Shown piece after piece: positions 1,687 through 42,302 of a DNA stretch of 42,837 nucleotides. The DNA comes from Fusobacteriaceae bacterium (GTDB lineage Bacteria > Fusobacteriota > Fusobacteriia > Fusobacteriales > Fusobacteriaceae): contig JAITPM010000109.1 in assembly GCA_031289425.1 (NCBI GenBank), positions 1-42,837 on the forward strand, given 5' to 3'. A program made the position numbers and the translations under genes. The stretch's first letter is position 1; the number at the start of each line of letters is the position of its first letter. Below the pieces are notes generated by a model. That model searched no databases and was not told the origin of the DNA. It worked only from the letters and a program-made list of their open reading frames with translations.

Positions 1687-1715
1687 TTGTATTTATAAAA
1701 AAATTTTGATATACT
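1687..1715 (+). promoter_or_regulatory. Candidate promoter of the TPR gene
   Basis: TTGTAT and TATACT are spaced 17 bases apart. The -10 box is good; the -35 matches only its TTG core. The implied start of transcription near 1722 lies downstream of a TTG codon at 1706 that is in frame with the TPR gene, which argues for the ATG at 1766 as the real start. Confidence 0.4.
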
Positions 1716-1765
1716 ATCATAAGAGAAACAATATAATAATTTTGATTTTTGGGAACGGTGAAGAG

Positions 1766-3766
1766 ATGGTTAGAAAAATTAAGAAAGACAAAAAAATGTA
1801 CCTTAATAATGGAATTAAAAAAGCTACCCAAAATTTGCATACAGAAGCTATAAAGGATTTTGATGAAGCGATAGAATTAGACCCTAATTTTATTGAGGCA
1901 TATTATAACAGGGGAATCGCTGAATATGAATCAGAATTATACGAAGAAGCTATTAAAGATTATGATAAAGCAATAGAAATATTCCCTAAATTTTACGATG
2001 CATATTGCAATAGAGGAATTGCCAAATATGAATTAAATTTATATAAAGAAGCTATAGAAGATTTTGATAAAGCAATAGAAATAAATCCCGATTTCGCCGG
2101 TGCATATTTCACCCGTGGAAATGCTAAAGCTGAATTAAATTTATATGAAGAAGCTATTAAAGATTTTGATAAAACTATTGAATTAGATCCTGATTTCGCT
2201 GATGTATATTTTAGCCGTGGAAATCTTAAAGCCGGATTAAATTTGTATGAAGAAGCTATTAAAGATTTTGATAAAACTATTGAATTAAACCAAGGTTCTG
2301 TTGGTGCATATTATAATAGAGGAACTTCTAAAGCTGGATTAAATTTACAAGAAGAGGCTATTAAAGATTTTGATAAAACTATTGAATTAGATCCTGATTT
2401 TGCCGGTGCGTATTATAATAGGGGAATTTCTAAAGCTGATTTAACTTTCTTTGAAGAAGCTATAAAGGATCTTGATAAAACTATTGAACTTGATCCTAAT
2501 TTCGCAATTTCATATTATGATAGAGGAAGTTCCAAAGCTGAATTAACTTTATACGAAGATGCTATTAAAGATTTTGATAAAGCTATTGAGTTAGATCCTA
2601 CTTTTCCAGTTGCATATCATAATAGAGGAAATTCTAAAGCATTATTAAATTTACACAAAGATGCTATTAAAGATTTTGATAAAGCTATTGAATTAGACCC
2701 CAATTGGCCGGCTGTATATTATAATAGAGGAAATTCTAAAATCGAATTAATGCTATATGAAGAAGCTGTAAAAGATTTTGACAAAGCTATTGAATTAGAC
2801 CCGGATTTTATTGGCGCATATTATAATAGAGGAAATTTTAAAGCTGAATTCGATTTGTATGAAGAAGCTATTAAAGATTATGATAAAGTAATAGAATTAG
2901 ATCCTGATTTTACAGATGTATATTATAGCAGAGGAAATTCTAAAGCTGAATTAATGCTATATGAAGATGCTATTAAAGATTTTGATAAAACTATTGAATT
3001 GGATCCAGAGTGGGCAGATGTATATTATAACAGAGGAAATGTTAACGCCGAATTAATGCTATATGAAGATGCTATTAAAGATTTTGATAAAGTAATAGAA
3101 TTAGATTCTAATTTTACTAAGGCATACGTCGATAGAGGAATTTCTAAATACAAATTAAAATTATATGAAGAGTCAATAGAGGATTATGATAAGGCGATAG
3201 AATTGGAACCTCTTTTTAATAATATATATGTTAATAGAGGAATTTCTAAAGCTGAATTAAAATTATATGAAGAGGCAATAGAAGATTTTGATAGAGCAAT
3301 AGAATTAGATTCAGATTTTATGGGTGCATATTATAATAGAGGAATTTCTGAGTATGAATTAAAATTATATAAAAAAGCATTAAAAGATTTTGATAAAGTA
3401 ATAGAATTAGATTCAGATTTTATAGGTGCATATTATAACAGAGGGCTCACTAAAGCTGAATTAAAACTATATAAAGAAGCATTAAAAGATTTTGATAAAA
3501 CAATAGAATTAGATCCAAATTTCTTAGGAGCATATCATAACAGAGGATTTACTAAATTTAGATTAAAATTATATAAAGAATCAATAAAAGATTACGACAA
3601 AGCAATAGAAATAGACCCTAATTTTGCAGGGGCATATATTGCTAGAGGAATTTCTAAAACTGAATTAAAATTAAATGAAGAAGCAGTAGAAGATTATGCT
3701 ATAGCGATAGAATTAGACCCTCATTTGATTGAAACATACTTTAACATGTGGAAAAATAAAAATTAA
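1766..3766 (+). CDS. Tetratricopeptide-repeat protein with 19 tandem TPRs
   Basis: A 666-residue protein built almost wholly from 19 consecutive 34-residue TPR units (the first degenerate), of the type 'AYYNRGxSKAELxLYEEAI' followed by 'KDFDKAIELDPDF'. TPR arrays form a right-handed superhelix that binds peptides or partner proteins; the ligand is unknown. There is no signal peptide, membrane segment or catalytic domain, so it is probably a cytoplasmic scaffold. The asparagine in the YYNRG motif of nearly every unit is typical of arrays that bind extended peptides. I take the ATG at 1766 as start. The in-frame TTG at 1706 would add 20 hydrophobic residues but overlaps the candidate -10 box. 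Units 4-13 are very similar at DNA level, so repeat number may vary between strains. Confidence 0.92.
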   Translation: MVRKIKKDKKMYLNNGIKKATQNLHTEAIKDFDEAIELDPNFIEAYYNRGIAEYESELYEEAIKDYDKAIEIFPKFYDAYCNRGIAKYELNLYKEAIEDFDKAIEINPDFAGAYFTRGNAKAELNLYEEAIKDFDKTIELDPDFADVYFSRGNLKAGLNLYEEAIKDFDKTIELNQGSVGAYYNRGTSKAGLNLQEEAIKDFDKTIELDPDFAGAYYNRGISKADLTFFEEAIKDLDKTIELDPNFAISYYDRGSSKAELTLYEDAIKDFDKAIELDPTFPVAYHNRGNSKALLNLHKDAIKDFDKAIELDPNWPAVYYNRGNSKIELMLYEEAVKDFDKAIELDPDFIGAYYNRGNFKAEFDLYEEAIKDYDKVIELDPDFTDVYYSRGNSKAELMLYEDAIKDFDKTIELDPEWADVYYNRGNVNAELMLYEDAIKDFDKVIELDSNFTKAYVDRGISKYKLKLYEESIEDYDKAIELEPLFNNIYVNRGISKAELKLYEEAIEDFDRAIELDSDFMGAYYNRGISEYELKLYKKALKDFDKVIELDSDFIGAYYNRGLTKAELKLYKEALKDFDKTIELDPNFLGAYHNRGFTKFRLKLYKESIKDYDKAIEIDPNFAGAYIARGISKTELKLNEEAVEDYAIAIELDPHLIETYFNMWKNKN

Positions 3767-6497: not shown

Positions 6498-8552
6498 ATG
6501 ACCGAACTTGAAGAAAAAATTGCTCTTAGAGAAGATTTATATAAATGGTTTTCAGAACATGTGTCAAGTTCCAATTTATTTGAATTATATTTGGGATTAA
6601 ATAAAGTTGAACAATTTGCAAAGAAGAAAAAATTGATTTCCGGTTCACTGTTAGATCCGGAAACACTTGATAAAATAAAATTAATCAAAACATATGTTTC
6701 CACAAATGCAAAATTTATAGATGTAGATAACAAACAAATCCCTATAATCAAAGATGCATTACAGTTGTTGAGCGAATATTGGAGTAAACATAAGAAAGTT
6801 GTATCATCTGACATTATAAACGCATATATCCCCGAGACAAACACAGATGAAGATATTTCTGATATGTGCTCGGATTCGCTTGTTGGTTATGATACACTAA
6901 GTAGTGAAAAAGAACATTTTATTGATAATACTAAATTCTCAATACCTCTTAATCTTAGTCATACGGATGATTTTGATTGTTTTGATGTATCTATTGGTCT
7001 TAATTTTCCATTACCAATATCTAATGAGTTTGTCCAACCGATTGAAATTGATCAATTCGATTTTTCTATTAATCATATTCCAGATATTTATGACAATAAT
7101 ACTAGTCGTTCAACAGAACAAACCTTGTTTTCATATGCCGAAAATGACTATTATACTCCATATAAAGTTATTTTGGCTGGAAGGTTTCGCCGTGGATTCT
7201 TATTGAATTCCGCAATTGAAATAGATAGATATAGAACAAGTTATAAAAAAATATATCAAAAAATATCAAAAGAAAAAGATAGAGAAATTCAAAACGCAAT
7301 GAAAAAAATAGGAATTGAATATCAAGGTAGGATTTATTCTTCGGACACAATGCTAAGTGTTGAAATCAGAAAAAAATTGATGAAATATATAAATGATAGC
7401 TTTGATTCAGGAAAAAATGCTATTTATTATAAAGCTTTGTTTGATGAATTTTCAGAAGATTTTTTGAATGAATATATTTATAGTCCGGAAATGTTGAAAA
7501 GTTACCTTGAATATTGGAATCAAGGACAATATGCTATCAAACGCTTGTATGTTTCCAAAGACGGGACAACTGAAGTCAATCCGGTAGAAGAAATCCGTGT
7601 GTACATGAAGGAAGCCAATTCCATACTTACATTTGATAATCTGGAGATTAGGCTTACACATATACCGCTTAATAAAATAAAAAATGTACTTTCCAGCAAT
7701 GATGAATTCATTCGTAACGGTGTAGGAGAATATTTTGTTGCTGATATAGTAGATTTAAACAATGATGAACTGGATGATATAGCAAGAATCATCAAGCAAG
7801 TGATTGATGACAAAGAATTTATTGCAGGGAATGAATTGATTGAAGCAATTGGCAGGAAATATCCACAGATATCTGAAAAACTCTCTATCTTCTCCACCTT
7901 TGGGAAAAGAGATGTTATAGGATATTACCTCAAAGATAAATTTTCATTTAATGGAAATATTATAAGTAAGTATGGGGAAGAGCTTTCAATGGCTGACGTA
8001 TTTGGTCATTATTGTCTAAAGCACAATCATGTTACCTTGGATGAATTAAATCTACTGAGCAAAGAACTGGATGCGAATATATATTTTGAGGCTGTTTACG
8101 CCAATTCTTTACGTATAAATCAAAATGAATTCATATCAAAAAAATTTGTAAAATTTGATATAAAGAGAACTGACGAGGCAATAGATAAGTTTTGTATATC
8201 AGATTACATTGCTATCCAAAATGTCAATCAATTTGCATCTTTTCCCCCTATTGGATATCCGTGGAACAACTATTTATTAGAGCATTATGTGTATGAATAT
8301 AGTAAAAAATATCAACTTTTTCCTGCTACATTTAATACAAATTCTTCTGTAGGTGCAATTATAAAAAAATCTTCAAAGTATAAAAATTTTGAAGAAATAC
8401 TTACCGATGTATTGGCAAAGAGTAAAATAAATCTAAGCGCTGATATTGCAGTAGCGTATCTATATGAACAAGGATTTATCGGAAGGAGAAGTTATGCTAA
8501 AATAGGACAAATCTTGACAAATGCCAAAAGATTGAGAGAGCAGGAAAATTAA
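6498..8552 (+). CDS. Uncharacterised BREX-island protein, probable tandem winged helices
   Basis: I do not recognise this 684-residue protein. Residues 1-120 are helical; 120-225 are acidic and low in lysine (a probable flexible linker rich in D, S and N); 225-684 are a globular region. Segments about 360-418 (a helix, then DEFIRNGVGEYFVAD), 495-556 (VFGHYCLKHNHVTLDEL through NQNEFISKKFVKFD) and probably 285-345 look like successive winged-helix or HARE-HTH-type domains, suggesting DNA binding. The C-terminus (GYPWNNYLLEHYVYEY through IGRRSYAKIGQ) is also helical. There is no SGGKDS PAPS-reductase loop, methyltransferase motif, P-loop or nuclease motif. A GGAG box ten bases upstream supports the ATG. 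As first gene of the island it may be the specificity or DNA-recognition component (inference). Confidence 0.7.
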   Translation: MTELEEKIALREDLYKWFSEHVSSSNLFELYLGLNKVEQFAKKKKLISGSLLDPETLDKIKLIKTYVSTNAKFIDVDNKQIPIIKDALQLLSEYWSKHKKVVSSDIINAYIPETNTDEDISDMCSDSLVGYDTLSSEKEHFIDNTKFSIPLNLSHTDDFDCFDVSIGLNFPLPISNEFVQPIEIDQFDFSINHIPDIYDNNTSRSTEQTLFSYAENDYYTPYKVILAGRFRRGFLLNSAIEIDRYRTSYKKIYQKISKEKDREIQNAMKKIGIEYQGRIYSSDTMLSVEIRKKLMKYINDSFDSGKNAIYYKALFDEFSEDFLNEYIYSPEMLKSYLEYWNQGQYAIKRLYVSKDGTTEVNPVEEIRVYMKEANSILTFDNLEIRLTHIPLNKIKNVLSSNDEFIRNGVGEYFVADIVDLNNDELDDIARIIKQVIDDKEFIAGNELIEAIGRKYPQISEKLSIFSTFGKRDVIGYYLKDKFSFNGNIISKYGEELSMADVFGHYCLKHNHVTLDELNLLSKELDANIYFEAVYANSLRINQNEFISKKFVKFDIKRTDEAIDKFCISDYIAIQNVNQFASFPPIGYPWNNYLLEHYVYEYSKKYQLFPATFNTNSSVGAIIKKSSKYKNFEEILTDVLAKSKINLSADIAVAYLYEQGFIGRRSYAKIGQILTNAKRLREQEN

Positions 8553-8627
8553 TGTATTATAATTTTGAGAATAAATTTAAATAAATAATATAATAATAGT
8601 ATTAATATGCTGGATGGAGGAATTGGA

Positions 8628-9392
8628 ATGAGAAGAAAGCGAAGTTTGAATAGTTATTCACATCATGCGCCAAGATTAAATTGGTTTGAGCAATACTTTA
8701 AATATAAAGATACATTTAATGTAAATCATAGTTTGGGGTCGTCAATGCTCAAATATTTTATAAAATTTTTGAAAGATGCCTGTCTATTGGATAAAAAAGG
8801 TTTTACAAATCTGGCAAAAATAGTAGATAAAATTAAACTAAGGAACCCAAATAGCTGGGCAATTATACTGTCCAATTTATGTTATTCTCCTCAAATTAAA
8901 TGGTATATTAAAAACATACATATTAATGAAAGTTACTTAAGAAAAGAAATTCTTTCGATGTTGACAAACGCCGGAGCAAGTGCAAAAGGCATAACAGATA
9001 TTTGGATGTCTTTAGTAAGAATATTGAATCTACCTTTTGGAGAAGTAGGTTTGGGGTATGTGACTAAAGAAAAAAACAGATCCTTATCTTTAACCAGAAC
9101 CGCTTGGCAAAATCCTGACCCAATCGTAATTTTGTATTCTCTCTATAAATTCGCCGAGTATTGCGGAGATTATTATCAATTCACCCTGACACGTTTATTA
9201 AAATATGATATAGATAGTGCTGGAATTAGCCCAACAGAAATTTATGGAATCGACCGTACTCAAATGGAAAAAATTCTTTTGGGACTTTCGATTAATTATC
9301 CCGATTATATATCTGTTTCATTCACACATGACTTAGACAATATAAGCCTTCATGGTGATAAATCATCTGAAAATGTACTAAACCTGTTTTAA
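8628..9392 (+). CDS. Stand-alone DUF4007-like protein (C-terminal BrxP-like module)
   Basis: A 254-residue protein resembling the DUF4007-type region that in BREX type 4 BrxP and related proteins follows a PAPS-reductase domain. Recognisable stretches are the PRLNWFEQYF opening, DPIVILYSLYKFAE-GDYYQF, GISPTEIYGIDRTQM and a terminal SINYPDYISVSFTHDLDNI. The ATP-sulfurtransferase loop (SGGKDS) of the reductase half is absent here and in the neighbouring gene. I place the start at the ATG at 8628 because GGAGG lies seven bases before it; the in-frame ATG at 8607 has no ribosome site. It sits 16 bases before brxC in the same operon. The biochemical role of DUF4007 is not established to my knowledge. 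Confidence 0.7.
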   Translation: MRRKRSLNSYSHHAPRLNWFEQYFKYKDTFNVNHSLGSSMLKYFIKFLKDACLLDKKGFTNLAKIVDKIKLRNPNSWAIILSNLCYSPQIKWYIKNIHINESYLRKEILSMLTNAGASAKGITDIWMSLVRILNLPFGEVGLGYVTKEKNRSLSLTRTAWQNPDPIVILYSLYKFAEYCGDYYQFTLTRLLKYDIDSAGISPTEIYGIDRTQMEKILLGLSINYPDYISVSFTHDLDNISLHGDKSSENVLNLF

Positions 9393-9408
9393 TTAGGAGG
9401 AGATAATC

Positions 9409-12400
9409 ATGGCGTTAGAAAAATATGGTCATTATTTTAGTATTGATGAAGATTATTTCCCAGCAGTTACGGAAGATCTTATCAATAGGGGAAAGGTTGA
9501 CTGGAAAAAGTTTTATCCACATGAAACTTTTGTAAAATTGCTAAAAGATACTGTAAGCGTTTTGACCAGACAACAAAAACTCTCTATATGGGTAGAAGGT
9601 GCATACGGTACCGGTAAATCCCATGCAGTACTTACTTTGAAAAAGTTATTGGATGCCGATGAAAATCAAGTAAAGGAATATTTTGGGAAATATATAGCTA
9701 ATCTTCCGACCGATTTGTTTAATAAATTTCAAGGAGTCAAAAATCAAGGTCAGATTTTGACTATTCATCGTTATGGTTCATCTACAATACACAGTGATAG
9801 GGACTTGATATTTGCTGTTCAAGAGAGCATTAAGAAATCTCTGGAAGATAGAAAAATTGAAAATAAAGGTCAAAATGCATTAAAAGAAGCTGTTATTGCA
9901 TGGCTTTCTGATATAGATAACAGAAATTTCTTTAATAGCTTAATCACCGGTAAATATGCAAACGGATTTGATGGTGATAATGTAGAAATAGTTATCGAAA
10001 AGTTGAATACTCTTTCAGAAGAAAGTCTCATTCATTTGATGAATAAAATATTTAAAGTCGCAGATGAAGTTGGTATTAATGCAATCAAGATAGATATTGA
10101 CGGATTGATTTCTTGGATAAAAAATGTTATCTATACCAATAACCTAAAGGCTATTGTATTTATTTGGGATGAATTTACAGAATATTTTTATCATAATAGA
10201 AATTCTCTAACAGGGTTTCAGAAATTGGTAGAATTGGGAGCTACAGAGCCATTTTGTTTTATGATTGTAACGCATAAGAGCGCCGCATTATTTGATGATT
10301 CTGATAGGGATAAGATGAAGATTTTAGATAGATTCATTAGACCTACATGTAGCATTGAATTGCCGGAAAATATGGCTTTCCAATTGATAGGGGCGGCTAT
10401 GGAGAAAAATCAGGATTCACAGATACTTTCCGATTGGGATGTGGCTGCCAATGATTTGAATAAACGCCTAAAGGATTCCAGAGATTTGGTCAAAAAAAGA
10501 GCAGGAATCAGTGAAAAAGAACTTATGAATATTCTTCCTATTCATCCCTATACTGCACTATTATTAAAGTATGTATCTTCGGCTTTTAATTCAAATCAAC
10601 GGAGTATGTTTGATTTTATAAAAAATGATAAAGGAGAAGAAATCAAGGGATTTCAATGGTTTATAAAAAACTATGGTCCGGCAGATGACGCACCTTTACT
10701 TACTATTGATATGTTATGGGATTTTTTCTATGAAAAAGGAAAGGAAAATTTATCTCCTGACATTAGGACTATTCTTGATTCTTATTCACGCCAAAGCACA
10801 AAGAATTTGAACGAAGAAGAACAAAAGGTTTTAAAGACTGTTTTATTGTTACAGGCTATTTCTCAAAAAGTAGGAGATTCTGTAGAACTATTTATTTCTA
10901 ATGATAAAAATGTGAATAACGCATACGATGGTTCAGAGCTCGAAAATGGTGCAGCAGGTCGTATTGCTGAAAAATTAGTCAAAGAACAAATACTATATAA
11001 AAAACCTCTGGGTGCAAATAAATTCCAATATTCTGCAATGATAAATGCTAATGATGCAGGAGCTATAGAGCGGATTAAAGAAGAATTACGAAAAAAATCT
11101 ACCTTTGATCTTGTGAGTGAGGGGAATGTCTTAGATGCTTTCACTTTGAATGGAGCATTGGGACTTCGTTATAAGATAGAATATGCTACATCTGATAGTT
11201 TTAAAGCTAAAATCAATACTATGCGCAATCAAGAAGATACTTTTGCAAATAAAATCTTAGCTATTGCTACCTTTGCAAGAAATGATGAAGAAAGTGCTGC
11301 TATTTCCAAGGCAATAACAGCCGCAGTAAAAGATGGCAGTTATAAAATGATTTTTATAGATACTTCATCTACACCCTTAGGCTCTGATGCGTTCGAACAG
11401 TATCTGGAAAACATGGCAAATAGTAATTATCATAGAGGAAAGGATAATTCACTTGCCAGTCAATATGAGAATAATGCAAAAGAAGTCCTCAAAAAATGGA
11501 AGAATCGCATCCTTGATGGAGAGTTTATTCTTTATAATAAAGAAAAACCTCAAGGAGAGAGATTTTCTAACTTTGATGATTTATGTGATGAATTTTCTCA
11601 TATCAATAAAAATAAATTCCCTTTGGGAATTGAGAATTACAAAGTGATAGATAACATGTTTGCAGCCAATTTTTTGAAGTTGGGGGCAGAATGTGGGATA
11701 TCACAAATCGTAACAGGGACTTTTAAATCTGGTAATCCCAATACAAAACTAGACACTGCCCTTGCTGGAGCATGGAATGTAGATGGGTATTGGAGTCTTT
11801 CAGAAAATCGCAACCTACTAATAACAAAGATCAAAACTGCCATAGATGAAGAAATTGACAAATCCCTTATAAAAGATGGGAAAGTCTCGATCGCACACAT
11901 TTATAATATTCTGAGTGGTGAGAGATATGGATTTATGCCTTGCAATCTTACTGCTTTTATATTGGGATTCCTATTGAAAGAATATGCCAACGATACCTAC
12001 CGCTGGTATGGCGGGCAGGACAATGGAAATATGAGCGCAACAAAATTAAAGGATATGATAGAAGAAGTTATTAGACTTCAAATCACTCCAAATTCCCGCT
12101 ATGAAGATAAATTCATAGTTAAAATGACAAATGACGAAATGGTATTTAATGAGGTTACAGCTAGTATTTTCAACATTCCACCAAATCTTTGCACTTCTGT
12201 AGAGCGAACTATATCTTATCTCGGCGAGAAAATGCAAAAGCTGATTTTTCCTATTTGGAGTTTAAAGTACATTCTTGAAAAAATGGAAATTAAATCTTCA
12301 GATAAAGTGATAAAATCTATCATTGACAAATATCTTATAATTGCCAACAGTCAAAGCATAGAAGGATTAAATAGTGGTAATCAAATCGCACTGGATATTG

Positions 12401-13605
12401 GTAAAATATATGCTGATAATCCACTGGCTTCCGAAGATTTGAAAAAACTTATTACAAAAGAACACTGTGAAGAAGGAATCATACAATTTTTATCTGGGTT
12501 TGAAAATGGTCAACTGATTTCACTTTCCAATGAAATAGGAGACCGTAAACAATATATAAATGTACTTAAAAAAAGATTTGTTGCTAATTCAGCAAGTTTA
12601 ATATGGAACATTGGTGCAGCAGAGCAAATAATAAAAGAAGTAATTATCGAATACAAAATTATTGCTGAGAGTAATAAGATTATTGGTAAAGCGACCTCAT
12701 TTACAGATTGTATATATAATTGGTCTGAAAAAATAAAGTTTATAAAAATATCTTATGATGCAATAAAAGATCATGTGGTAGAAGTTAAACCTTTCCTTGA
12801 AATGCTCGTAATGATAAAGCGTTCCGGTGCTTTGTCGAACCAACAAAAAGAATTTTTATTTCTATTGCAAGCAAAAAAAGATGCTTTTAGTGAATTTTAT
12901 AATAATCAAATTAATATTTTTAAAAAGGCTTGTGAATTCTATATTGATAGACTTTCTAATGATGAAATTGAAGAAATATTCAGAAATATTCCTACTGAAA
13001 TGTTTATAAAAGAAAAGAGTGAATACCTAAAAATAGTAGAGGGCGTAGTTTCTGTATTCATAGAGAATCAGGGAAAAACTAAGCTTAAAACCATTTGGAA
13101 AAGTAAAACCGGGACAGATAATCCTCAAAATTGGTCCAGTAAATATTTGACTCCTATATTGTGTATGGTTTCTGATGGTGAACGAGATAGAGCAAAGGTC
13201 GCATTTGAATGCATTAAAAACAATAATACTAAAAAAGGGGAGATAGAAAAAGCTATAGATTATTTTGAAAAAGCTGCTTTCTTTGCTTCATTAAACAATG
13301 AAGATGAGCGCAATGATGCTTTTAGAAAGTATATCATAAAAGATTTTTCTGTTATGTTGACTGATATTGATGAAGTAAGGGATTATTTGAATGAAAAAAT
13401 GACTTCAGAGCCATATGATTGGTTCGCTAATATTGATGTGGAAAAAAGGCTCCGTGCTTTTGCCGAATCAAAATATAATACCGGTGGTAGTAATAAGGCC
13501 TTGGAAATAATAGAAAACATGGATGAAACAAAATTAAAGATTTATCTAAAACGATTGATTAAAGATAATATGACAGTTGGGATAGAAATCATAAAAGACA
13601 AATAA
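9409..13605 (+). CDS. brxC: BREX large P-loop ATPase (BrxC/PglY-like)
   Basis: A 1398-residue cytoplasmic ATPase, within the usual 1200-1400 size of BrxC/PglY proteins. The Walker A loop GAYGTGKSH is at residues 64-72 and a Walker B strand IVFIWDEFTEYF at about 249-260, with VTHKSAAL and FIRPTCSIELPE following as in AAA-type sensor regions. The remaining 900 residues are helical with no further motif I recognise. BrxC-type ATPases are essential in characterised BREX systems and work with PglZ, but their exact reaction is unresolved. An AGGAGGAG site precedes the ATG. The gene starts 16 bases after the DUF4007-like gene and pglZ follows 32 bases later. The frame is intact throughout. Confidence 0.85.
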   Translation: MALEKYGHYFSIDEDYFPAVTEDLINRGKVDWKKFYPHETFVKLLKDTVSVLTRQQKLSIWVEGAYGTGKSHAVLTLKKLLDADENQVKEYFGKYIANLPTDLFNKFQGVKNQGQILTIHRYGSSTIHSDRDLIFAVQESIKKSLEDRKIENKGQNALKEAVIAWLSDIDNRNFFNSLITGKYANGFDGDNVEIVIEKLNTLSEESLIHLMNKIFKVADEVGINAIKIDIDGLISWIKNVIYTNNLKAIVFIWDEFTEYFYHNRNSLTGFQKLVELGATEPFCFMIVTHKSAALFDDSDRDKMKILDRFIRPTCSIELPENMAFQLIGAAMEKNQDSQILSDWDVAANDLNKRLKDSRDLVKKRAGISEKELMNILPIHPYTALLLKYVSSAFNSNQRSMFDFIKNDKGEEIKGFQWFIKNYGPADDAPLLTIDMLWDFFYEKGKENLSPDIRTILDSYSRQSTKNLNEEEQKVLKTVLLLQAISQKVGDSVELFISNDKNVNNAYDGSELENGAAGRIAEKLVKEQILYKKPLGANKFQYSAMINANDAGAIERIKEELRKKSTFDLVSEGNVLDAFTLNGALGLRYKIEYATSDSFKAKINTMRNQEDTFANKILAIATFARNDEESAAISKAITAAVKDGSYKMIFIDTSSTPLGSDAFEQYLENMANSNYHRGKDNSLASQYENNAKEVLKKWKNRILDGEFILYNKEKPQGERFSNFDDLCDEFSHINKNKFPLGIENYKVIDNMFAANFLKLGAECGISQIVTGTFKSGNPNTKLDTALAGAWNVDGYWSLSENRNLLITKIKTAIDEEIDKSLIKDGKVSIAHIYNILSGERYGFMPCNLTAFILGFLLKEYANDTYRWYGGQDNGNMSATKLKDMIEEVIRLQITPNSRYEDKFIVKMTNDEMVFNEVTASIFNIPPNLCTSVERTISYLGEKMQKLIFPIWSLKYILEKMEIKSSDKVIKSIIDKYLIIANSQSIEGLNSGNQIALDIGKIYADNPLASEDLKKLITKEHCEEGIIQFLSGFENGQLISLSNEIGDRKQYINVLKKRFVANSASLIWNIGAAEQIIKEVIIEYKIIAESNKIIGKATSFTDCIYNWSEKIKFIKISYDAIKDHVVEVKPFLEMLVMIKRSGALSNQQKEFLFLLQAKKDAFSEFYNNQINIFKKACEFYIDRLSNDEIEEIFRNIPTEMFIKEKSEYLKIVEGVVSVFIENQGKTKLKTIWKSKTGTDNPQNWSSKYLTPILCMVSDGERDRAKVAFECIKNNNTKKGEIEKAIDYFEKAAFFASLNNEDERNDAFRKYIIKDFSVMLTDIDEVRDYLNEKMTSEPYDWFANIDVEKRLRAFAESKYNTGGSNKALEIIENMDETKLKIYLKRLIKDNMTVGIEIIKDK

Positions 13606-13637
13606 GATACTTGGCTTAAAGAGGAGGGAGATGCATT

Positions 13638-15935
13638 ATGAAGCATTGTTTACCTATTGATGGGTGCATAAAAAAAATATTTAAATATTTAAATTCTGAA
13701 AATGACCATCAACCTATATTTGTCAATATCGAAAGTAGTGATTCACTTAAAAAAATCAAAGAAGAACTTGGTATTAGTGTTATCGTAAAAGATGTATCTG
13801 ATTATTGTAATAAAGATGATGAAAACCCACAATTGGAATTATTGCTCGAAGACCTTAAGCATAGTAAAAACAATAAAGATGGAGAACATATACTTTTAAC
13901 CGGCCTAATTTCTTTTCTTAAAATGCAAGGAGGACTAGCATTAGAAAAATATCTATCGGTCCTAATAACAATGACACTTCGCGGAAAATTAGTCGTTTTG
14001 TGTTATCAAGCAAAACAATATTTACAATTTCCAGATATCAGATTTGAAAGAAGAATTATTTTTCTCGAAGATGAGATATTAAGAAAACCTAAAATATTAT
14101 TTATTAATAAAAAATTAAATCTCGAGATATCGAATACAATTATGAATGGTATTCGTTATTTGCTAAAAAATATAGAAATATCCGATATAGATATAATCAC
14201 AGTGTCCACATCAAAGAGCAAGCAAGATTATCCCAATTCTTTATTTAAAATTACCGAAATAACTGATGCTTACGATGCATTGGTATTGATGGATGCCGTT
14301 ACAGAGTTGATTCCTAGACATTGTGGTACCAATGAACAATGGGATTTTGCTCTATCGCTTTTTTCAAAGGAAAGGACATGGAATCATGTTTTCACAATGG
14401 AATTGGGAGAAAGTGTAAATTTATATTTGCTTGCAAACAAATGGAGCTTTTTTAATACAGATGAAAAATGGTTATACTTTATTGCTCTCAAATTAAATGG
14501 AATATCTAATAATTGGTGCTTGGATTATGCACTTATAAATTCAAACAATGTGAAAGATTTTGAAAAAAATATCTATAGAAGCATTGTTGAGATATCGCAT
14601 GACAGTAAAGAATTTGATGATAAATATGACAAAAGAAAACGATTAATCAAAGAAATGGGAAAATCTCTCGGTGATGGTGCTGTTGATTATTGTCAATATA
14701 TTAGGATTAAGGGCTCAGACATCATCTATTATCTGACTGATAATACCCAAGTAGAGAAAGAATTGATTATTGAGTGTTTATGTAAATATAAGTATGATGA
14801 TAAAGCTATTTTGAGTATTCTAAAAATTGTATATCCGGCTCTGGCAGATTATTTGTATGATTATAGATTTAATATAACTTTGCTAGATGAGTATTTTCAA
14901 TTGTACAAATACCAAAAAATAACAAATACTATTCGCCCAGAATTCGAAGAACTCGTGAAAACACAAGCCATAAAAAGAGAATATAATAGTATTCTTCCAT
15001 TTAGAAGTGAAAAAATAGAAGCAATCGTCAAAAAAGATTCTTACCTGTATTTTGTTGATGCAATGAGTGTGGAATATCTCGGTTATATTCTTACTAAATG
15101 CAAAAATATGGAGCTTATGATAAATGTTACGGTTTGTCATTCCAACCTCCCGTCGATAACTGAATGCAACAAAGAATTTTTAGATGAATTTACACGTGAA
15201 GAGATAGATTTTTCTTTGATAAAAGAACTTGATGAAATAAAACACCATGGGAAAGATGATTTTGATTATCAAAAAACTAAACTTCCCATTCATTTGATTA
15301 GGGAATTGGAGATTATTGATGAAATTCTATCTAGAGCCAAAAACCAATTGAATTCTGATAAATACAAAAAAATTATTATCATCTCAGACCATGGAGCCAG
15401 CAGATTGGCAGTTATAAAAGAAAATACGCTAAATATTGATGTCAATTCCAAAGGAACCCATGGTGGCAGATGTTGCGCATATACTCCTGACACTACAAAT
15501 ATCGAATATGCAACACAAGAAGGAGATTATTATATTTTAGCTAATTATGACCGGTTCAGAGGCGGCAGAGCTGCAAGTGTAGAAACTCATGGTGGTGCAA
15601 CTCTTGAAGAAGTCGTGATTCCCATCATTGAGCTCACTCAGAGAACTACTGAAATAGAAATCGAGATTGTGACACGAAAGATTTTTGTTAGTTTTAGAAA
15701 GAAAGCTGTTATTGTATTATTTTCTAAGACAAAGTTATCTTCTGTATCAATATGCATAAATGGTCAATATTATCATGGGATAGCAATACCCGATAATAAA
15801 TACATTATTGATATGCCCGATATAAAACAAGCTGGAATCTACACTGTGGATGTCTATGAGAATAATAATTTATTAAAAAATGGGCTTTCTTTTGAAGTAG
15901 AAAAAGAAGGATCTAAAATAACAAAATTATTTTAG
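13638..15935 (+). CDS. pglZ: BREX phosphatase-family protein PglZ
   Basis: A 765-residue protein with a PglZ (alkaline-phosphatase superfamily) domain in its second half. The metal-site residues of this fold are visible: D474 in YFVDAMSVEYLG, the SDHG motif (583-586) in IIIISDHGASRL, and H608 in GTHGGR. A second HGG at about 650 leads into LEEVVIPIIEL, as in other PglZ proteins. The last 90 residues look like a beta-sandwich. PglZ is the hallmark gene of all BREX types and is needed for defence; size and neighbours fit the type 4 form best. GAGGAGG lies ten bases before the ATG. An out-of-frame ATG at 13631 is ignored. Confidence 0.88.
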   Translation: MKHCLPIDGCIKKIFKYLNSENDHQPIFVNIESSDSLKKIKEELGISVIVKDVSDYCNKDDENPQLELLLEDLKHSKNNKDGEHILLTGLISFLKMQGGLALEKYLSVLITMTLRGKLVVLCYQAKQYLQFPDIRFERRIIFLEDEILRKPKILFINKKLNLEISNTIMNGIRYLLKNIEISDIDIITVSTSKSKQDYPNSLFKITEITDAYDALVLMDAVTELIPRHCGTNEQWDFALSLFSKERTWNHVFTMELGESVNLYLLANKWSFFNTDEKWLYFIALKLNGISNNWCLDYALINSNNVKDFEKNIYRSIVEISHDSKEFDDKYDKRKRLIKEMGKSLGDGAVDYCQYIRIKGSDIIYYLTDNTQVEKELIIECLCKYKYDDKAILSILKIVYPALADYLYDYRFNITLLDEYFQLYKYQKITNTIRPEFEELVKTQAIKREYNSILPFRSEKIEAIVKKDSYLYFVDAMSVEYLGYILTKCKNMELMINVTVCHSNLPSITECNKEFLDEFTREEIDFSLIKELDEIKHHGKDDFDYQKTKLPIHLIRELEIIDEILSRAKNQLNSDKYKKIIIISDHGASRLAVIKENTLNIDVNSKGTHGGRCCAYTPDTTNIEYATQEGDYYILANYDRFRGGRAASVETHGGATLEEVVIPIIELTQRTTEIEIEIVTRKIFVSFRKKAVIVLFSKTKLSSVSICINGQYYHGIAIPDNKYIIDMPDIKQAGIYTVDVYENNNLLKNGLSFEVEKEGSKITKLF

Positions 15936-15946
15936 GGGGATTTATA

Positions 15947-17392
15947 ATGGAAGAAAAACTTAGAGAATGTTTTGATGAAATGGTTGTCTTTAAAGATTTG
16001 AAAAAAAGTAATTTCTTTTCGGCTCTGAGCCTTCCTTCTTTTTTACGGGATTGGTTGCTAAAACGATTTGAGAATGAAAATGGAGAATTTAATATAGATG
16101 AAGTTTCTAAATTTATCCGAGAATTTTTACCAAAAAAAGATGATTGGGTTAGTATAAAAAATAGGATTATCATTGACAATGAAAGAGTAAAATTTCTTAC
16201 AAAAATCTCAGTTGATATTGATATTAAAACACAAGAAATTTCTTTTTCTTTAGTGGATTTTGGATTGACAAATAAAGAAACAATTATTGAGCCGAGTATT
16301 TGGAACAAATGCAAGAATGAACTGGTCAAGGGAAAAGAAACTTGGGGTGTGGTAGAGATCGGATATCGCTTCCCGAATCCGGAATATAAGTTGCCGGGAA
16401 AAATTAAATTGACCGGGTTTACTAATTTTTGTCCATATACAATTGATATTGATTATTTCAAAGATGTCAGAAAAGAATTTACAATTACCGAATGGGTTAA
16501 TGTAATATTGGGTGCTATTGACTACAACGCATCAGGATATAAAGATGAATCCGAAAAACTTTCTATGTTAACAAGGCTCCTCCCTTTTGTGGAAAAACGT
16601 TTGAACCTGATTGAGCTTGCTCCCAAGGGAACAGGTAAATCATATTTATTTGGACGAGTAAGTAAGTTTGGATGGTTATCTTCGGGTGGTGTAATGTCTA
16701 GAGCAAAAATGTTCTATGACATTGGTAGGCATACTCAAGGATTGGTTTGCAACAATGATTTTGTCGCTCTTGATGAAGTGCAAACGATATCTTTTACGGA
16801 TATAGATGAAATGAGAGCCGCATTAAAGGGTTATATGGAATCTGGAGTATTTACTGTAGGTAATTATGAAGGAATGGCAGATTCAGGAATAATTTTACTT
16901 GGAAATATCAAACAAGAAAATATGGACGAATATCAAAATATGTTCGAAGAGCTTCCACAAGTTTTCCATGAAAGCGCGCTTATTGATAGATTTCATGGAT
17001 TTATCAAGGGTTGGGATATTCCAAGGATGCATGATGATTTAAAAATCTCAGGATGGGCACTTAATTCAGAATATTTTTGCACTATTCTTCATTTATTACG
17101 TGAAGATGCTAGTTATCGTGCAATCATAGATCAATTGATCATTGTACCTGAGCATGCCGACACGCGGGATACTGAGGCTATTAAACGTATTTGTACAGGA
17201 TATTTGAAGTTGTTATTTCCCAACGTTCGTTCTATTAAGGATATCGCTGCAAAAGATTTTAACACATACTGCCTGAGACCTGCATCAAAAATGCGTGGAA
17301 TAATCAAGACTCAGCTCGGGATTTTGGATAATGAATTCAAAGGGAAGAATGTACCAAAATTCAGCATCAAAGACTTTTCTTATGAAGATTAA
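15947..17392 (+). CDS. brxL: BREX AAA+ protein BrxL, short form
   Basis: A 481-residue AAA+ protein of the BrxL family. Walker A is APKGTGKS (225-232) in IELAPKGTGKSYLFGR and Walker B is FVALDEVQ (272-279), followed by LPQVFHESALIDRFHGFIKG, a BrxL-type sensor region. The longer BrxL of type 1 BREX (about 680 residues) continues into a Lon-protease-like domain. This protein ends soon after the AAA+ part, matching the shorter 450-residue BrxL form, and I see no Lon catalytic Ser-Lys region. The ribosome site AGGGGGA overlaps the pglZ stop codon, so translation is probably coupled. It is the last gene of the island; a strong terminator begins 11 bases after its stop. Confidence 0.87.
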   Translation: MEEKLRECFDEMVVFKDLKKSNFFSALSLPSFLRDWLLKRFENENGEFNIDEVSKFIREFLPKKDDWVSIKNRIIIDNERVKFLTKISVDIDIKTQEISFSLVDFGLTNKETIIEPSIWNKCKNELVKGKETWGVVEIGYRFPNPEYKLPGKIKLTGFTNFCPYTIDIDYFKDVRKEFTITEWVNVILGAIDYNASGYKDESEKLSMLTRLLPFVEKRLNLIELAPKGTGKSYLFGRVSKFGWLSSGGVMSRAKMFYDIGRHTQGLVCNNDFVALDEVQTISFTDIDEMRAALKGYMESGVFTVGNYEGMADSGIILLGNIKQENMDEYQNMFEELPQVFHESALIDRFHGFIKGWDIPRMHDDLKISGWALNSEYFCTILHLLREDASYRAIIDQLIIVPEHADTRDTEAIKRICTGYLKLLFPNVRSIKDIAAKDFNTYCLRPASKMRGIIKTQLGILDNEFKGKNVPKFSIKDFSYED

Positions 17393-40152: not shown

Positions 40153-40424
40153 ATTAGTAGAACCTTATTATATAACTCCTTTACTATACAATTTCTTATT
40201 TTAATAAGCTTTATTATATTTTTTTATAAATTTCTTAAAAAAAATTTATAATGATTTTTTCCCAAAATTTCTATGTTTTATTCATATTTTTCAATTTCAA
40301 AAAATATAATGCTTTACGATTTTGCAAAAATATAGTATGTTATTGTTATAAAAGAGTCACCTAAATATTTAAAAAAAATACTAAATTATTGTGAACATAA
40401 ATAAAACGAAAAATGGAGGAATCT
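40153..40424. other. AT-rich intergenic region before the MORN-repeat gene
   Basis: It contains an all-A/T inverted repeat (TTATAAATTT / AAATTTATAA, 40224-40251) with an eight-base loop, and a weak candidate promoter (TTGCAA at 40322, TATAAA at 40347, spacing 19). I see no RNA gene or operator I can support. Confidence 0.35.
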
Positions 40425-42302
40425 ATGAAAAAAGTAATATTTTTATTTTTAATGATTAGCATTATTGTTTTTAGTAGAGAAATATCGGATGGTCAAGTTC
40501 AGTATCGAAATGGAGCATATTATAAAAGTGATGAATCAGTGCCATACACCGGGATTATAAAAGGATATTATGATAGTGGTGCAGTTGAATTTGAATTCAA
40601 TATCAGAAACGGCATTAAAAACGGATTAGAGAAAGAATATTATTCTAACGGACAATTAAAAATAACATCTAATTTCAAAAATGGAAAAAGAAATGGATTA
40701 TATAAGAAATATTACGAAAATGGTAAATTGAATCTTTCGTCTAATTACAAAGATGGATATAAAAATGGAAAAGAAATATTATATAACTCCAATGAAAAAA
40801 AAGAAGAAGAAACTACTTATCAAAATGGTAATAAAAACGGGATACATAGAGAATATTATTCTGATGGTAAAATAAGCAGTGAAACAAATTATGTAAATGG
40901 CTCTCCAAAGGGAAGACATAAGAGGTATTGGGAAAATGGTAAATTAAGTGGTATATACGAATATAGTGGTGATTCTTGGTCTCTTAGAACAATAAAAGAA
41001 TATAACCGTAAGGGAAAAAAGATTAAAGATAATTCTGACTATTATAAAAATTCTAGTAAATCCAGTAAAAATGTTGAGAAATATCAGAAAATTGGAGGAT
41101 TGCTTTATAGAGAAGGGTCTTCAGCACCGTATACCGGAATAGCTAAGGCGACAAATAATTCTGGTAAAATAGAATCAAAAGCTAGATACAGCAATGGAAT
41201 ATTAAATGGGGACTATGTAATATACCATGACAATGGAAAAGTAAGTGAAAGAGGAACTTTCAAAAATGGTAAAAGAACCGGAATACTTAAAACATATTAT
41301 GAAAATGGAATATTACAATCTGAAAAAAATTATAAAGATGGTAATTATGATGGATTTGTAAAGACATACTATGAAAATAAAAAATTGCAATTGGAAGAAC
41401 TCTATAGTTACGGTAAACTCAATGGAAGTAGAAAAGAATATTATATAGACGGAAAACCACGTCAAATCCATAATTTCTTAAATGGGCAATTGGATGGAAA
41501 ATGGAGCGAATACTATATGAGTGGTCAATTAAAGGCCGAAAGAACTTATAAAAATGGTAAACTCAATGGAAAAGAAAAAAAATACTACGATAATGGAAAT
41601 CTTCAATCAGAAAACAATTGGAAAGACGGTAATCCTGATGGTGCATTCATCCAATATAGTGAAGATAAAAGTGTAGTTACAAAGGTAGAAAATAATAATA
41701 ACACATTGACAAGAATCATAGATGAAAATCAAACCCAACGCAAAGATGATGGACTACTTTATCAACTATATGAATCTGAGCCATATACAGGTATTATGTA
41801 TAGTATCGGTGATTATGAAAGTTATAGAGCTGATATAAAAAACGGAAAACTTGACGGCGCATATAGAACATACTATGGAAGTGGTGAAATTGAAAATATA
41901 ACTTATTACAAAAATGGATTAAAAAATGGTAATGAGAAAGGATATTATGATTATGGAAACATTAAAATGTCGAGAACTTGGGTAAATGGTAATCTTAATG
42001 GTATAGAAAAAAGTTATCATTACAACGGTAAGGTAGAATCAACAATTCTTTGGAGAAATGGTAAAAAGGAAGGGCTAGAAAAAGAATATTATGAAAATGG
42101 TAAATTATATCGAGAAATAGCATATAAAAATGGAAATCCTAATGGAATCTCCAGAGGATATCACAGTAATGGTCGTCTTTATTATCTAGGAAGTTATAAA
42201 AATGGAAACAGGGTAGGAAGTTTTAAAGAATACGATGAAGATGGTCAATTATATTCAGATGTACTGTATAAGGATGGATATCCTATAAAACGAATAAAGT
42301 AA
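40425..42302 (+). CDS. Secreted MORN-type repeat protein with three super-modules
   Basis: A 625-residue protein. The signal peptide MKKVIFLFLMISIIVFS is followed by about 20 repeats of 21-23 residues of the MORN_2/YwqK type, such as 'KYYENGKLNLSSNYKDGYKNG'. These form three super-modules, each opening with an L/V-Y-x(n)-PYTGI motif (PYTGI at residues 40, 235 and 453). Such repeats build an elongated beta-sheet; fusobacteria carry many of these proteins in their envelopes, of unknown function. No cysteine or lipobox is visible after the signal. I set the start at the ATG at 40425: the GGAGG ribosome site (40415-40419) overlaps the earlier in-frame ATG at 40413, which therefore cannot use it. 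Confidence 0.88.
   Translation: MKKVIFLFLMISIIVFSREISDGQVQYRNGAYYKSDESVPYTGIIKGYYDSGAVEFEFNIRNGIKNGLEKEYYSNGQLKITSNFKNGKRNGLYKKYYENGKLNLSSNYKDGYKNGKEILYNSNEKKEEETTYQNGNKNGIHREYYSDGKISSETNYVNGSPKGRHKRYWENGKLSGIYEYSGDSWSLRTIKEYNRKGKKIKDNSDYYKNSSKSSKNVEKYQKIGGLLYREGSSAPYTGIAKATNNSGKIESKARYSNGILNGDYVIYHDNGKVSERGTFKNGKRTGILKTYYENGILQSEKNYKDGNYDGFVKTYYENKKLQLEELYSYGKLNGSRKEYYIDGKPRQIHNFLNGQLDGKWSEYYMSGQLKAERTYKNGKLNGKEKKYYDNGNLQSENNWKDGNPDGAFIQYSEDKSVVTKVENNNNTLTRIIDENQTQRKDDGLLYQLYESEPYTGIMYSIGDYESYRADIKNGKLDGAYRTYYGSGEIENITYYKNGLKNGNEKGYYDYGNIKMSRTWVNGNLNGIEKSYHYNGKVESTILWRNGKKEGLEKEYYENGKLYREIAYKNGNPNGISRGYHSNGRLYYLGSYKNGNRVGSFKEYDEDGQLYSDVLYKDGYPIKRIK

What the first reader, a model, noticed from the sequence alone, without database searches (positions are those of the whole stretch)
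6498..17392. BREX type 4-like locus lacking both a methyltransferase and the PAPS-reductase domain
Seen: brxC-, pglZ- and short brxL-like genes in type 4 order, preceded by two genes without SGGKDS or methyltransferase motifs. Known: type 4 BREX uses BrxP, a PAPS-reductase-family protein, and other types modify host DNA with PglX. Inference: self/non-self discrimination here must work without the expected sulfur or methyl chemistry, or rely on a gene elsewhere. The locus may be a distinct subtype.
Basis: partly seen in the sequence, partly recalled or inferred. Interest (0 to 1): 0.85.

Follow-up and report, generated by a model that had tools for sequence, protein, structure and literature searches.

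The report
BREX type 4 with deleted sulfur enzyme
This is a type 4 BREX anti-phage island in which most of the gene for the DNA-sulfur-marking enzyme has been cut out, while a smaller gene hidden inside that same gene, with its own start signal, was left intact; it is a damaged copy rather than a new subtype, but it exposes a conserved gene-within-a-gene in type 4 BREX.

Summary
The observation largely holds. Five + strand genes lie at 6498-17392, and neither sulfur-transfer nor methyltransferase motifs occur in the first two. Gene 2 is not an unknown protein: it is the C-terminal DUF4007/SspB-like domain of BrxP. Between genes 1 and 2 lies a remnant of the start of brxP (8552-8584), so about 1.5 kb of brxP (PAPS reductase plus Fe-S region) has been deleted. 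Gene 1 (684 aa) is not a divergent PAPS reductase. It is a tandem winged-helix protein found upstream of intact brxP in 67 of 69 related loci with enough flank. No PAPS reductase or BrxX/PglX-grade methyltransferase was found elsewhere in the 97.8%-complete genome. A new feature emerged: in related intact brxP genes the DUF4007 half is preceded by an in-frame start codon with a strong Shine-Dalgarno site (81% of 67 dereplicated genes, against 1.3% of 2,387 other internal start codons), with strong synonymous-codon bias there. The window's deletion leaves exactly this nested gene. Verdict: a brxP-deleted derivative of type 4 BREX, probably unable to phosphorothioate DNA and most likely defence-silent. 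Not a distinct subtype.

The parts
6498..8552 (+). Upstream gene (684 aa): low-confidence N-terminal third, then a tandem winged-helix array (residues about 217-684); conserved neighbour of brxP in type 4 BREX, no family in Pfam/NCBIfam/PADLOC
   Evidence: no family; homologs; 67 of 69 loci; AlphaFold pLDDT 90-98 by block for about 221-684; fold matches to tandem winged-helix proteins
8552..8584 (+). 5' remnant of brxP: ATG overlapping the stop of the upstream gene, MYYNFENKFK*, matching the conserved BrxP start MY(S)Y-(T/E/N)-(W/F)-D
8585..8606 (+). Deletion scar (AT-rich); about 490 codons (PAPS reductase, alpha+beta domain, Fe-S region) are missing relative to intact brxP
   Evidence: inference from alignment with intact BrxP
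8616..8620 (+). Internal Shine-Dalgarno site GGAGG, 7 nt before ATG 8628; conserved inside brxP of relatives
8628..9392 (+). Nested/residual BrxP C-terminal domain (DUF4007, SspB/BrxA-like); ORF listed from 8607
9409..13605 (+). brxC (ATPase, 1398 aa; Walker A GAYGTGKSH and Walker B VFIWDE present)
13638..15935 (+). pglZ, BREX-4 type (765 aa)
15947..17392 (+). brxL, short form (481 aa; Walker A APKGTGKS present)

Best explanation
The island is a horizontally acquired type 4 BREX operon (upstream winged-helix gene - brxP - brxC - pglZ - brxL) that has lost about 1.5 kb of brxP. The deletion removes the PAPS reductase (sulfur transfer) and Fe-S regions; the dedicated cysteine desulfurase normally found after brxL is also absent. 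It spares the DUF4007/SspB-like domain, which in this BREX clade has its own ribosome-binding site and start codon inside brxP and is therefore predicted to be a gene within a gene. Shown here: homology, the brxP remnants on both sides, absence of PAPS reductase in the genome assembly, intact reading frames and conserved residues of the other genes, and a conserved internal initiation signal in relatives. Inferred: intact systems make two BrxP products (full-length fusion and free SspB-like subunit); the window makes only the short one; without the sulfur-transfer half the host DNA is not phosphorothioated by this system; and, as in type 1 BREX where restriction generally requires all components, the locus is most likely defence-silent (recently broken or an off state) rather than a new modification-free subtype.
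For: PADLOC BrxP model matches gene 2 only over positions 521-774 of 779. Relatives have a fused SGGKDS-bearing BrxP in 79 of 84 loci; besides the window, the exceptions are contig ends (L008, L045), a broken frame (L013) and a degenerate island (L016). The window's junction begins with the BrxP start at the expected stop/start overlap and resumes with ...SINMLDGGIGM, equivalent to ...KSLEMPKGGLKM of relatives. No PAPS reductase in the genome. Cysteine desulfurase is present in 61 of 66 relatives with enough flank after brxL, absent here. Remaining ORFs uninterrupted; only 5 of 228 near-invariant positions changed. Nested start: SD energy <= -7 in 81% of 67 dereplicated genes against 1.3% of 2,387 other internal starts; synonymous-shuffle z = -10.5; linker 'PKG' glycine is GGA in 32 of 33 genes (13.2 expected) while conserved Gly elsewhere follows expectation. 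DUF4007 model matches SspB (6juf, E=3.4e-5, prob 1.00). Restriction in type 1 BREX generally requires all components: PMC13326643 (abstract).
Against: The 5' remnant is only about 10 codons, so its identification rests on position plus a short match. Five long ORFs without a stop and with conserved residues fit either recent loss or continued function. No expression, ribosome-profiling or DNA-modification data exist for this strain. About 2% of the genome is unassembled and could hide a PAPS reductase. 'Defence-silent' is by analogy with type 1.
Confidence: 0.8

Rival explanations
1. Modification-free BREX subtype: the island is still an active defence that recognises invaders through the winged-helix protein, the SspB-like subunit and BrxC/PglZ/BrxL without any self mark.
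For: Both dedicated sulfur genes (PAPS reductase part, cysteine desulfurase) are missing while the other five reading frames stay intact and conserved; the nested subunit with its own Shine-Dalgarno is retained; a published survey found PAPS reductase in 406 but DUF4007 in 442 of 457 type 4 taxa, so further loci of this state may exist (PMC12839542).
Against: Only this one locus among about 80 relatives shows the state apart from contig ends and degenerate or broken loci; type 1 BREX generally needs all components for restriction (PMC13326643); brxP stumps show loss of a component, not an alternative design.
Confidence: 0.1
2. The sulfur-transfer function is supplied in trans by another PAPS reductase, so the locus still marks DNA.
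For: Cysteine desulfurase functions of Dnd and Ssp can be supplied by an IscS encoded elsewhere (PMC8092258), so splitting of sulfur genes from the operon is possible in principle.
Against: No PF01507 match in the genome while 14 of 14 control genomes match; the BrxP model finds no detached N-terminal part.
Confidence: 0.04
3. Assembly artefact: the true locus has an intact brxP and the contig joins its two ends wrongly.
For: The genome is a 123-contig draft; reads were not available.
Against: The junction holds about 20-30 nt of scar sequence with no evident shared repeat, which a misjoin normally needs (inference); no orphan piece of brxP occurs on another contig.
Confidence: 0.05
4. The internal start signal in intact brxP is only a relic of an ancestral gene fusion and is not used.
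For: DUF4007/SspB is a separate gene in Ssp systems (PMC12839542).
Against: The signal persists across genes of about 40-60% domain identity with strong synonymous-codon bias confined to that site, and GTG/TTG can replace ATG: a relic would have drifted.
Confidence: 0.15

Closest known systems
BREX type 4 (brxPCZL)
   Same: Same gene order and families: BrxC, type 4 PglZ, short BrxL, BrxP C-terminal domain; closest DUF4007 domains 58-59% identical, in Clostridia.
   Different: PAPS reductase and Fe-S parts of BrxP deleted; cysteine desulfurase absent; no phosphorothioation predicted.
SspBCD phosphorothioation system
   Same: DUF4007 domain folds like SspB (6juf); BrxC shows weak similarity to SspC models.
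   Different: SspD counterpart missing; no SspE or SspFGH recognised next to the island.
Genes within genes of defence systems (Cas11 in Cas8/Cas10 genes, RpnL/RpnS)
   Same: A C-terminal part translated, or here predicted to be translated, from an internal start (PMC11899642, PMC10327210).
   Different: In brxP the signal is only predicted, and the fusion partner is a sulfur-transfer enzyme.
BREX loci with disrupted pglX
   Same: Modification gene disrupted while other genes remain; a high frequency of such disruptions is noted for BREX (PMC9122589).
   Different: Here a phosphorothioation gene is deleted, with retention of a nested subunit and no sign of reversibility.

Membership tests
BREX type 4 | BrxC ATPase | tested here: met
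   PDLC02485 E=5.5e-296; Walker motifs present
BREX type 4 | Type 4 PglZ | tested here: met
   NF033445, 441.7 bits against a cut-off of 140
BREX type 4 | BrxL | tested here: met
   TIGR02688, 407 bits against 329
BREX type 4 | DUF4007/SspB-like domain | tested here: met
   BrxP C-terminal match; SspB fold
BREX type 4 | BrxP PAPS reductase domain | tested here: not met
   No SGGKDS, no PF01507 in locus or genome; deletion remnant instead. So it is a derivative, not a complete member
BREX type 4 | Phosphorothioate-modified host DNA | not testable with these tools
   Needs mass spectrometry or PT-seq
BREX types 1, 2, 3, 5, 6 | PglX/BrxX methyltransferase | tested here: not met
   Only the type 1 model NF033452 was used: best 52.8 of 500 bits, on an unlinked 508-aa MTase-like ORF on contig C64
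PAPS reductase (for the 684-aa protein) | PP-loop fold / SGGKDS | tested here: not met
   No family hit; model is tandem winged helices
SspBCD | SspB nickase active site | not tested
   Only the fold was compared
Gene within a gene | Separately translated short product | not testable with these tools
   The signal is strongly conserved; the product itself was not observed

The most novel reading that the evidence does not exclude
Type 4 BREX encodes a hidden second product of brxP, a free SspB-like DNA-binding subunit, whose function is separable from phosphorothioation; together with the undescribed winged-helix protein it lets this island act on foreign DNA without any sulfur or methyl mark. 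(The nested product alone, without the claim that this island is active, I hold at about 0.8.)
Probability: 0.12. Interest if true: 0.8.

Novelty: new variant of a known kind. Interest (0 to 1): 0.5.

Why it matters
The window is a natural deletion that separates the two halves of BrxP and leaves precisely the half with its own start signal. That gives a concrete, cheap prediction about the type 4 BREX systems of this clade: brxP makes two proteins. It also points to a conserved upstream winged-helix gene (67 of 69 loci) that is not among the type 4 components listed in the survey read here and has no PADLOC model. If the short product is real, a deletion of the whole brxP gene removes two subunits, and experiments on brxP would have to be read accordingly. 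As a stand-alone locus, however, the island is most simply a broken copy.

Tried and rejected
684-aa protein as divergent PAPS reductase or methyltransferase: rejected. PbeABCD identity: considered because it also pairs with phosphorothioation; rejected after reading PMC6459918, whose PbeA-D are different proteins. Relatives of the 684-aa protein in viral contigs and plasmids by sequence alone: none. Other type 4 BREX loci in the host's phylum: none among the 97 other genomes held, so no near relative with an intact gene at the same site. Empty insertion site in two congeneric genomes: the flanking gene's homologs lie in other contexts, so nothing could be concluded. Foldseek TM-scores for the 684-aa model are low over the full length; only the tandem winged-helix character is taken from them. 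Per-gene synonymous tests of the internal start are individually weak (10 of 80 below 0.05); the pooled test is what carries the claim. The Yuan et al. paper on type 4 BREX was not held, so its component list could not be checked.

Full report
What is there. The island at 6498-17392 holds five + strand genes. Genes 3-5 are BrxC, type 4 PglZ and a short BrxL, all well above curated or usual thresholds. Gene 2 matches the last third of the BrxP model (positions 521-774 of 779, E=1.2e-56). Gene 1 has no family.

Related loci. A scan of one genome per species with the BrxP C-terminal alignment gave 80 loci, mostly Clostridia with some other phyla. Annotated against window proteins and an intact metagenomic locus (L003), 79 of 84 loci carry a single BrxP gene with SGGKDS fused to the DUF4007 domain. 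The exceptions are the window, two contig ends, one gene with a broken frame and one degenerate island. Homologs of gene 1 stand upstream of brxP, mostly directly, in 67 of 69 loci with at least 2.5 kb of upstream sequence, and a cysteine desulfurase is present in 61 of 66 with at least 1.3 kb after brxL. The window is thus missing the PAPS-reductase half of BrxP and the desulfurase, and nothing else of this gene set.

The deletion. In intact relatives brxP starts with MYSYxWDxETGG, close to or overlapping the stop of gene 1. In the window the stop of gene 1 (TAATG) overlaps an ATG that opens MYYNFENKFK* (8552-8584), as in L003, L006 and L062, where the overlap is also one base. After about 20 nt of AT-rich sequence the text resumes with SINMLDGGIGM, the equivalent of KSLEMPKGGLKM at the end of the Fe-S region of relatives. 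About 490 codons are gone. The remnant is short, so this rests on position and sequence together.

No replacement in the genome. PF01507 finds nothing in the 97.8%-complete genome although it rings in all 14 control genomes. The full BrxP model finds only gene 2. The type 1 BREX methyltransferase model reaches 52.8 bits (cut-off 500), at a 508-aa MTase-like ORF on another contig among housekeeping genes. None of the 97 other genomes of the phylum holds a type 4 BrxC at E<=1e-30, so the island was probably acquired horizontally (inference).

The nested gene. In intact brxP genes the linker before DUF4007 holds an in-frame start codon in 80 of 80 loci (69 ATG, 8 GTG, 3 TTG), with anti-Shine-Dalgarno duplex energies <= -7 kcal/mol in 82.5% against 1.2% of 2,858 other in-frame start codons. 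The site value is the best start in a 24-residue linker, which favours it somewhat; the synonymous tests do not share that bias. After removing close relatives: 81% of 67 against 1.3% of 2,387; the pooled energy is 10.5 standard deviations below synonymous reshuffles treated in the same way; first Gly codon GGA 52 of 63 (22.4 expected). In the linker motif PKG, GGA is used in 32 of 33 (13.2 expected), while conserved glycines elsewhere in the same genes follow expectation (18 of 67 against 25.0; 21 of 67 against 24.9; 26 of 66 against 24.5). The signal therefore acts at nucleotide level. In the window it is GGAGG (8616-8620) before ATG 8628, with -9.3 kcal/mol, comparable to the starts of brxC, pglZ and brxL. 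The AlphaFold model of gene 2 is disordered for residues 1-10 and confident thereafter (pLDDT 93), which fits a start at residue 8. No paper in the library joins BREX with the phrase 'internal translation start'; precedents in other defence systems are Cas11 (PMC11899642) and Rpn (PMC10327210).

What the parts do. The DUF4007 domain folds like SspB (6juf and 6lb9, probability 1.00). SspB is a DNA nickase needed for phosphorothioation in Ssp (PMC8092258) and is also the nearest non-BrxA fold to BrxA (PMC9240713). Whether nickase residues are present here was not tested. Gene 1 is modelled with high confidence over residues of about 221-684 (block pLDDT 90-98) as a chain of about six winged-helix units (my count from the secondary structure); solved matches are tandem winged-helix proteins such as UFL1 and SelB. 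Its N-terminal part is variable in length and content among relatives (305-1419 aa ORFs, the shortest cut by contig ends; integrase SAM-like, DUF7662, HARE-HTH and Myb-like hits). I infer a DNA-binding scanning or recognition subunit.

Is it still working? The surviving genes keep their frames, and only 5 of 228 near-invariant positions differ, so decay is at most recent. Phosphorothioation by this locus is very unlikely without the PAPS reductase. Type 1 BREX restriction generally requires all components (PMC13326643), and disruption of the modification gene is a known recurrent state of BREX loci (PMC9122589). I therefore favour a defence-silent or off-state locus over a modification-free subtype. 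The published survey counts PAPS reductase in 406 and DUF4007 in 442 of 457 type 4 taxa (PMC12839542), so PAPS-less neighbourhoods have been counted before, though not explained in the text read.

Conclusion. The locus is a brxP-deleted derivative of type 4 BREX. Its value lies in drawing attention to a conserved gene within brxP and to a conserved upstream winged-helix gene.

Noticed in passing
L006-L085, linker before DUF4007 in brxP: Conserved internal Shine-Dalgarno plus start codon inside brxP across about 80 loci, predicting a free DUF4007 product.
   Followed up: yes
window 6498-8552 and homologs: Conserved winged-helix gene upstream of brxP in type 4 BREX, absent from PADLOC and not among the components listed in PMC12839542; variable N-terminal regions including integrase SAM-like domains.
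   Followed up: partly
L016 5775-7503: Oscillibacter sp. ER4 carries a degenerate type 4 island: DUF4007 piece running into a pglZ fragment, brxC gone.
   Followed up: no
L013 8426-10783: Pseudoramibacter alactolyticus brxP is split by a stop or frameshift within the DUF4007 domain; real or sequencing error unknown.
   Followed up: no
window 8565-8594: The brxP remnant and scar contain the best promoter-like match of its region (11 of 12), but the number of matches in the region equals chance.
   Followed up: no
G000:C64:3399-4922 (L096): Unlinked 508-aa N6-methyltransferase-like ORF between housekeeping genes, without an evident restriction partner.
   Followed up: no
window 1706-3763 and 40413-42299: A 686-aa protein made mostly of TPR repeats and a 629-aa protein with MORN repeats lie near the window's two ends.
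   Followed up: no
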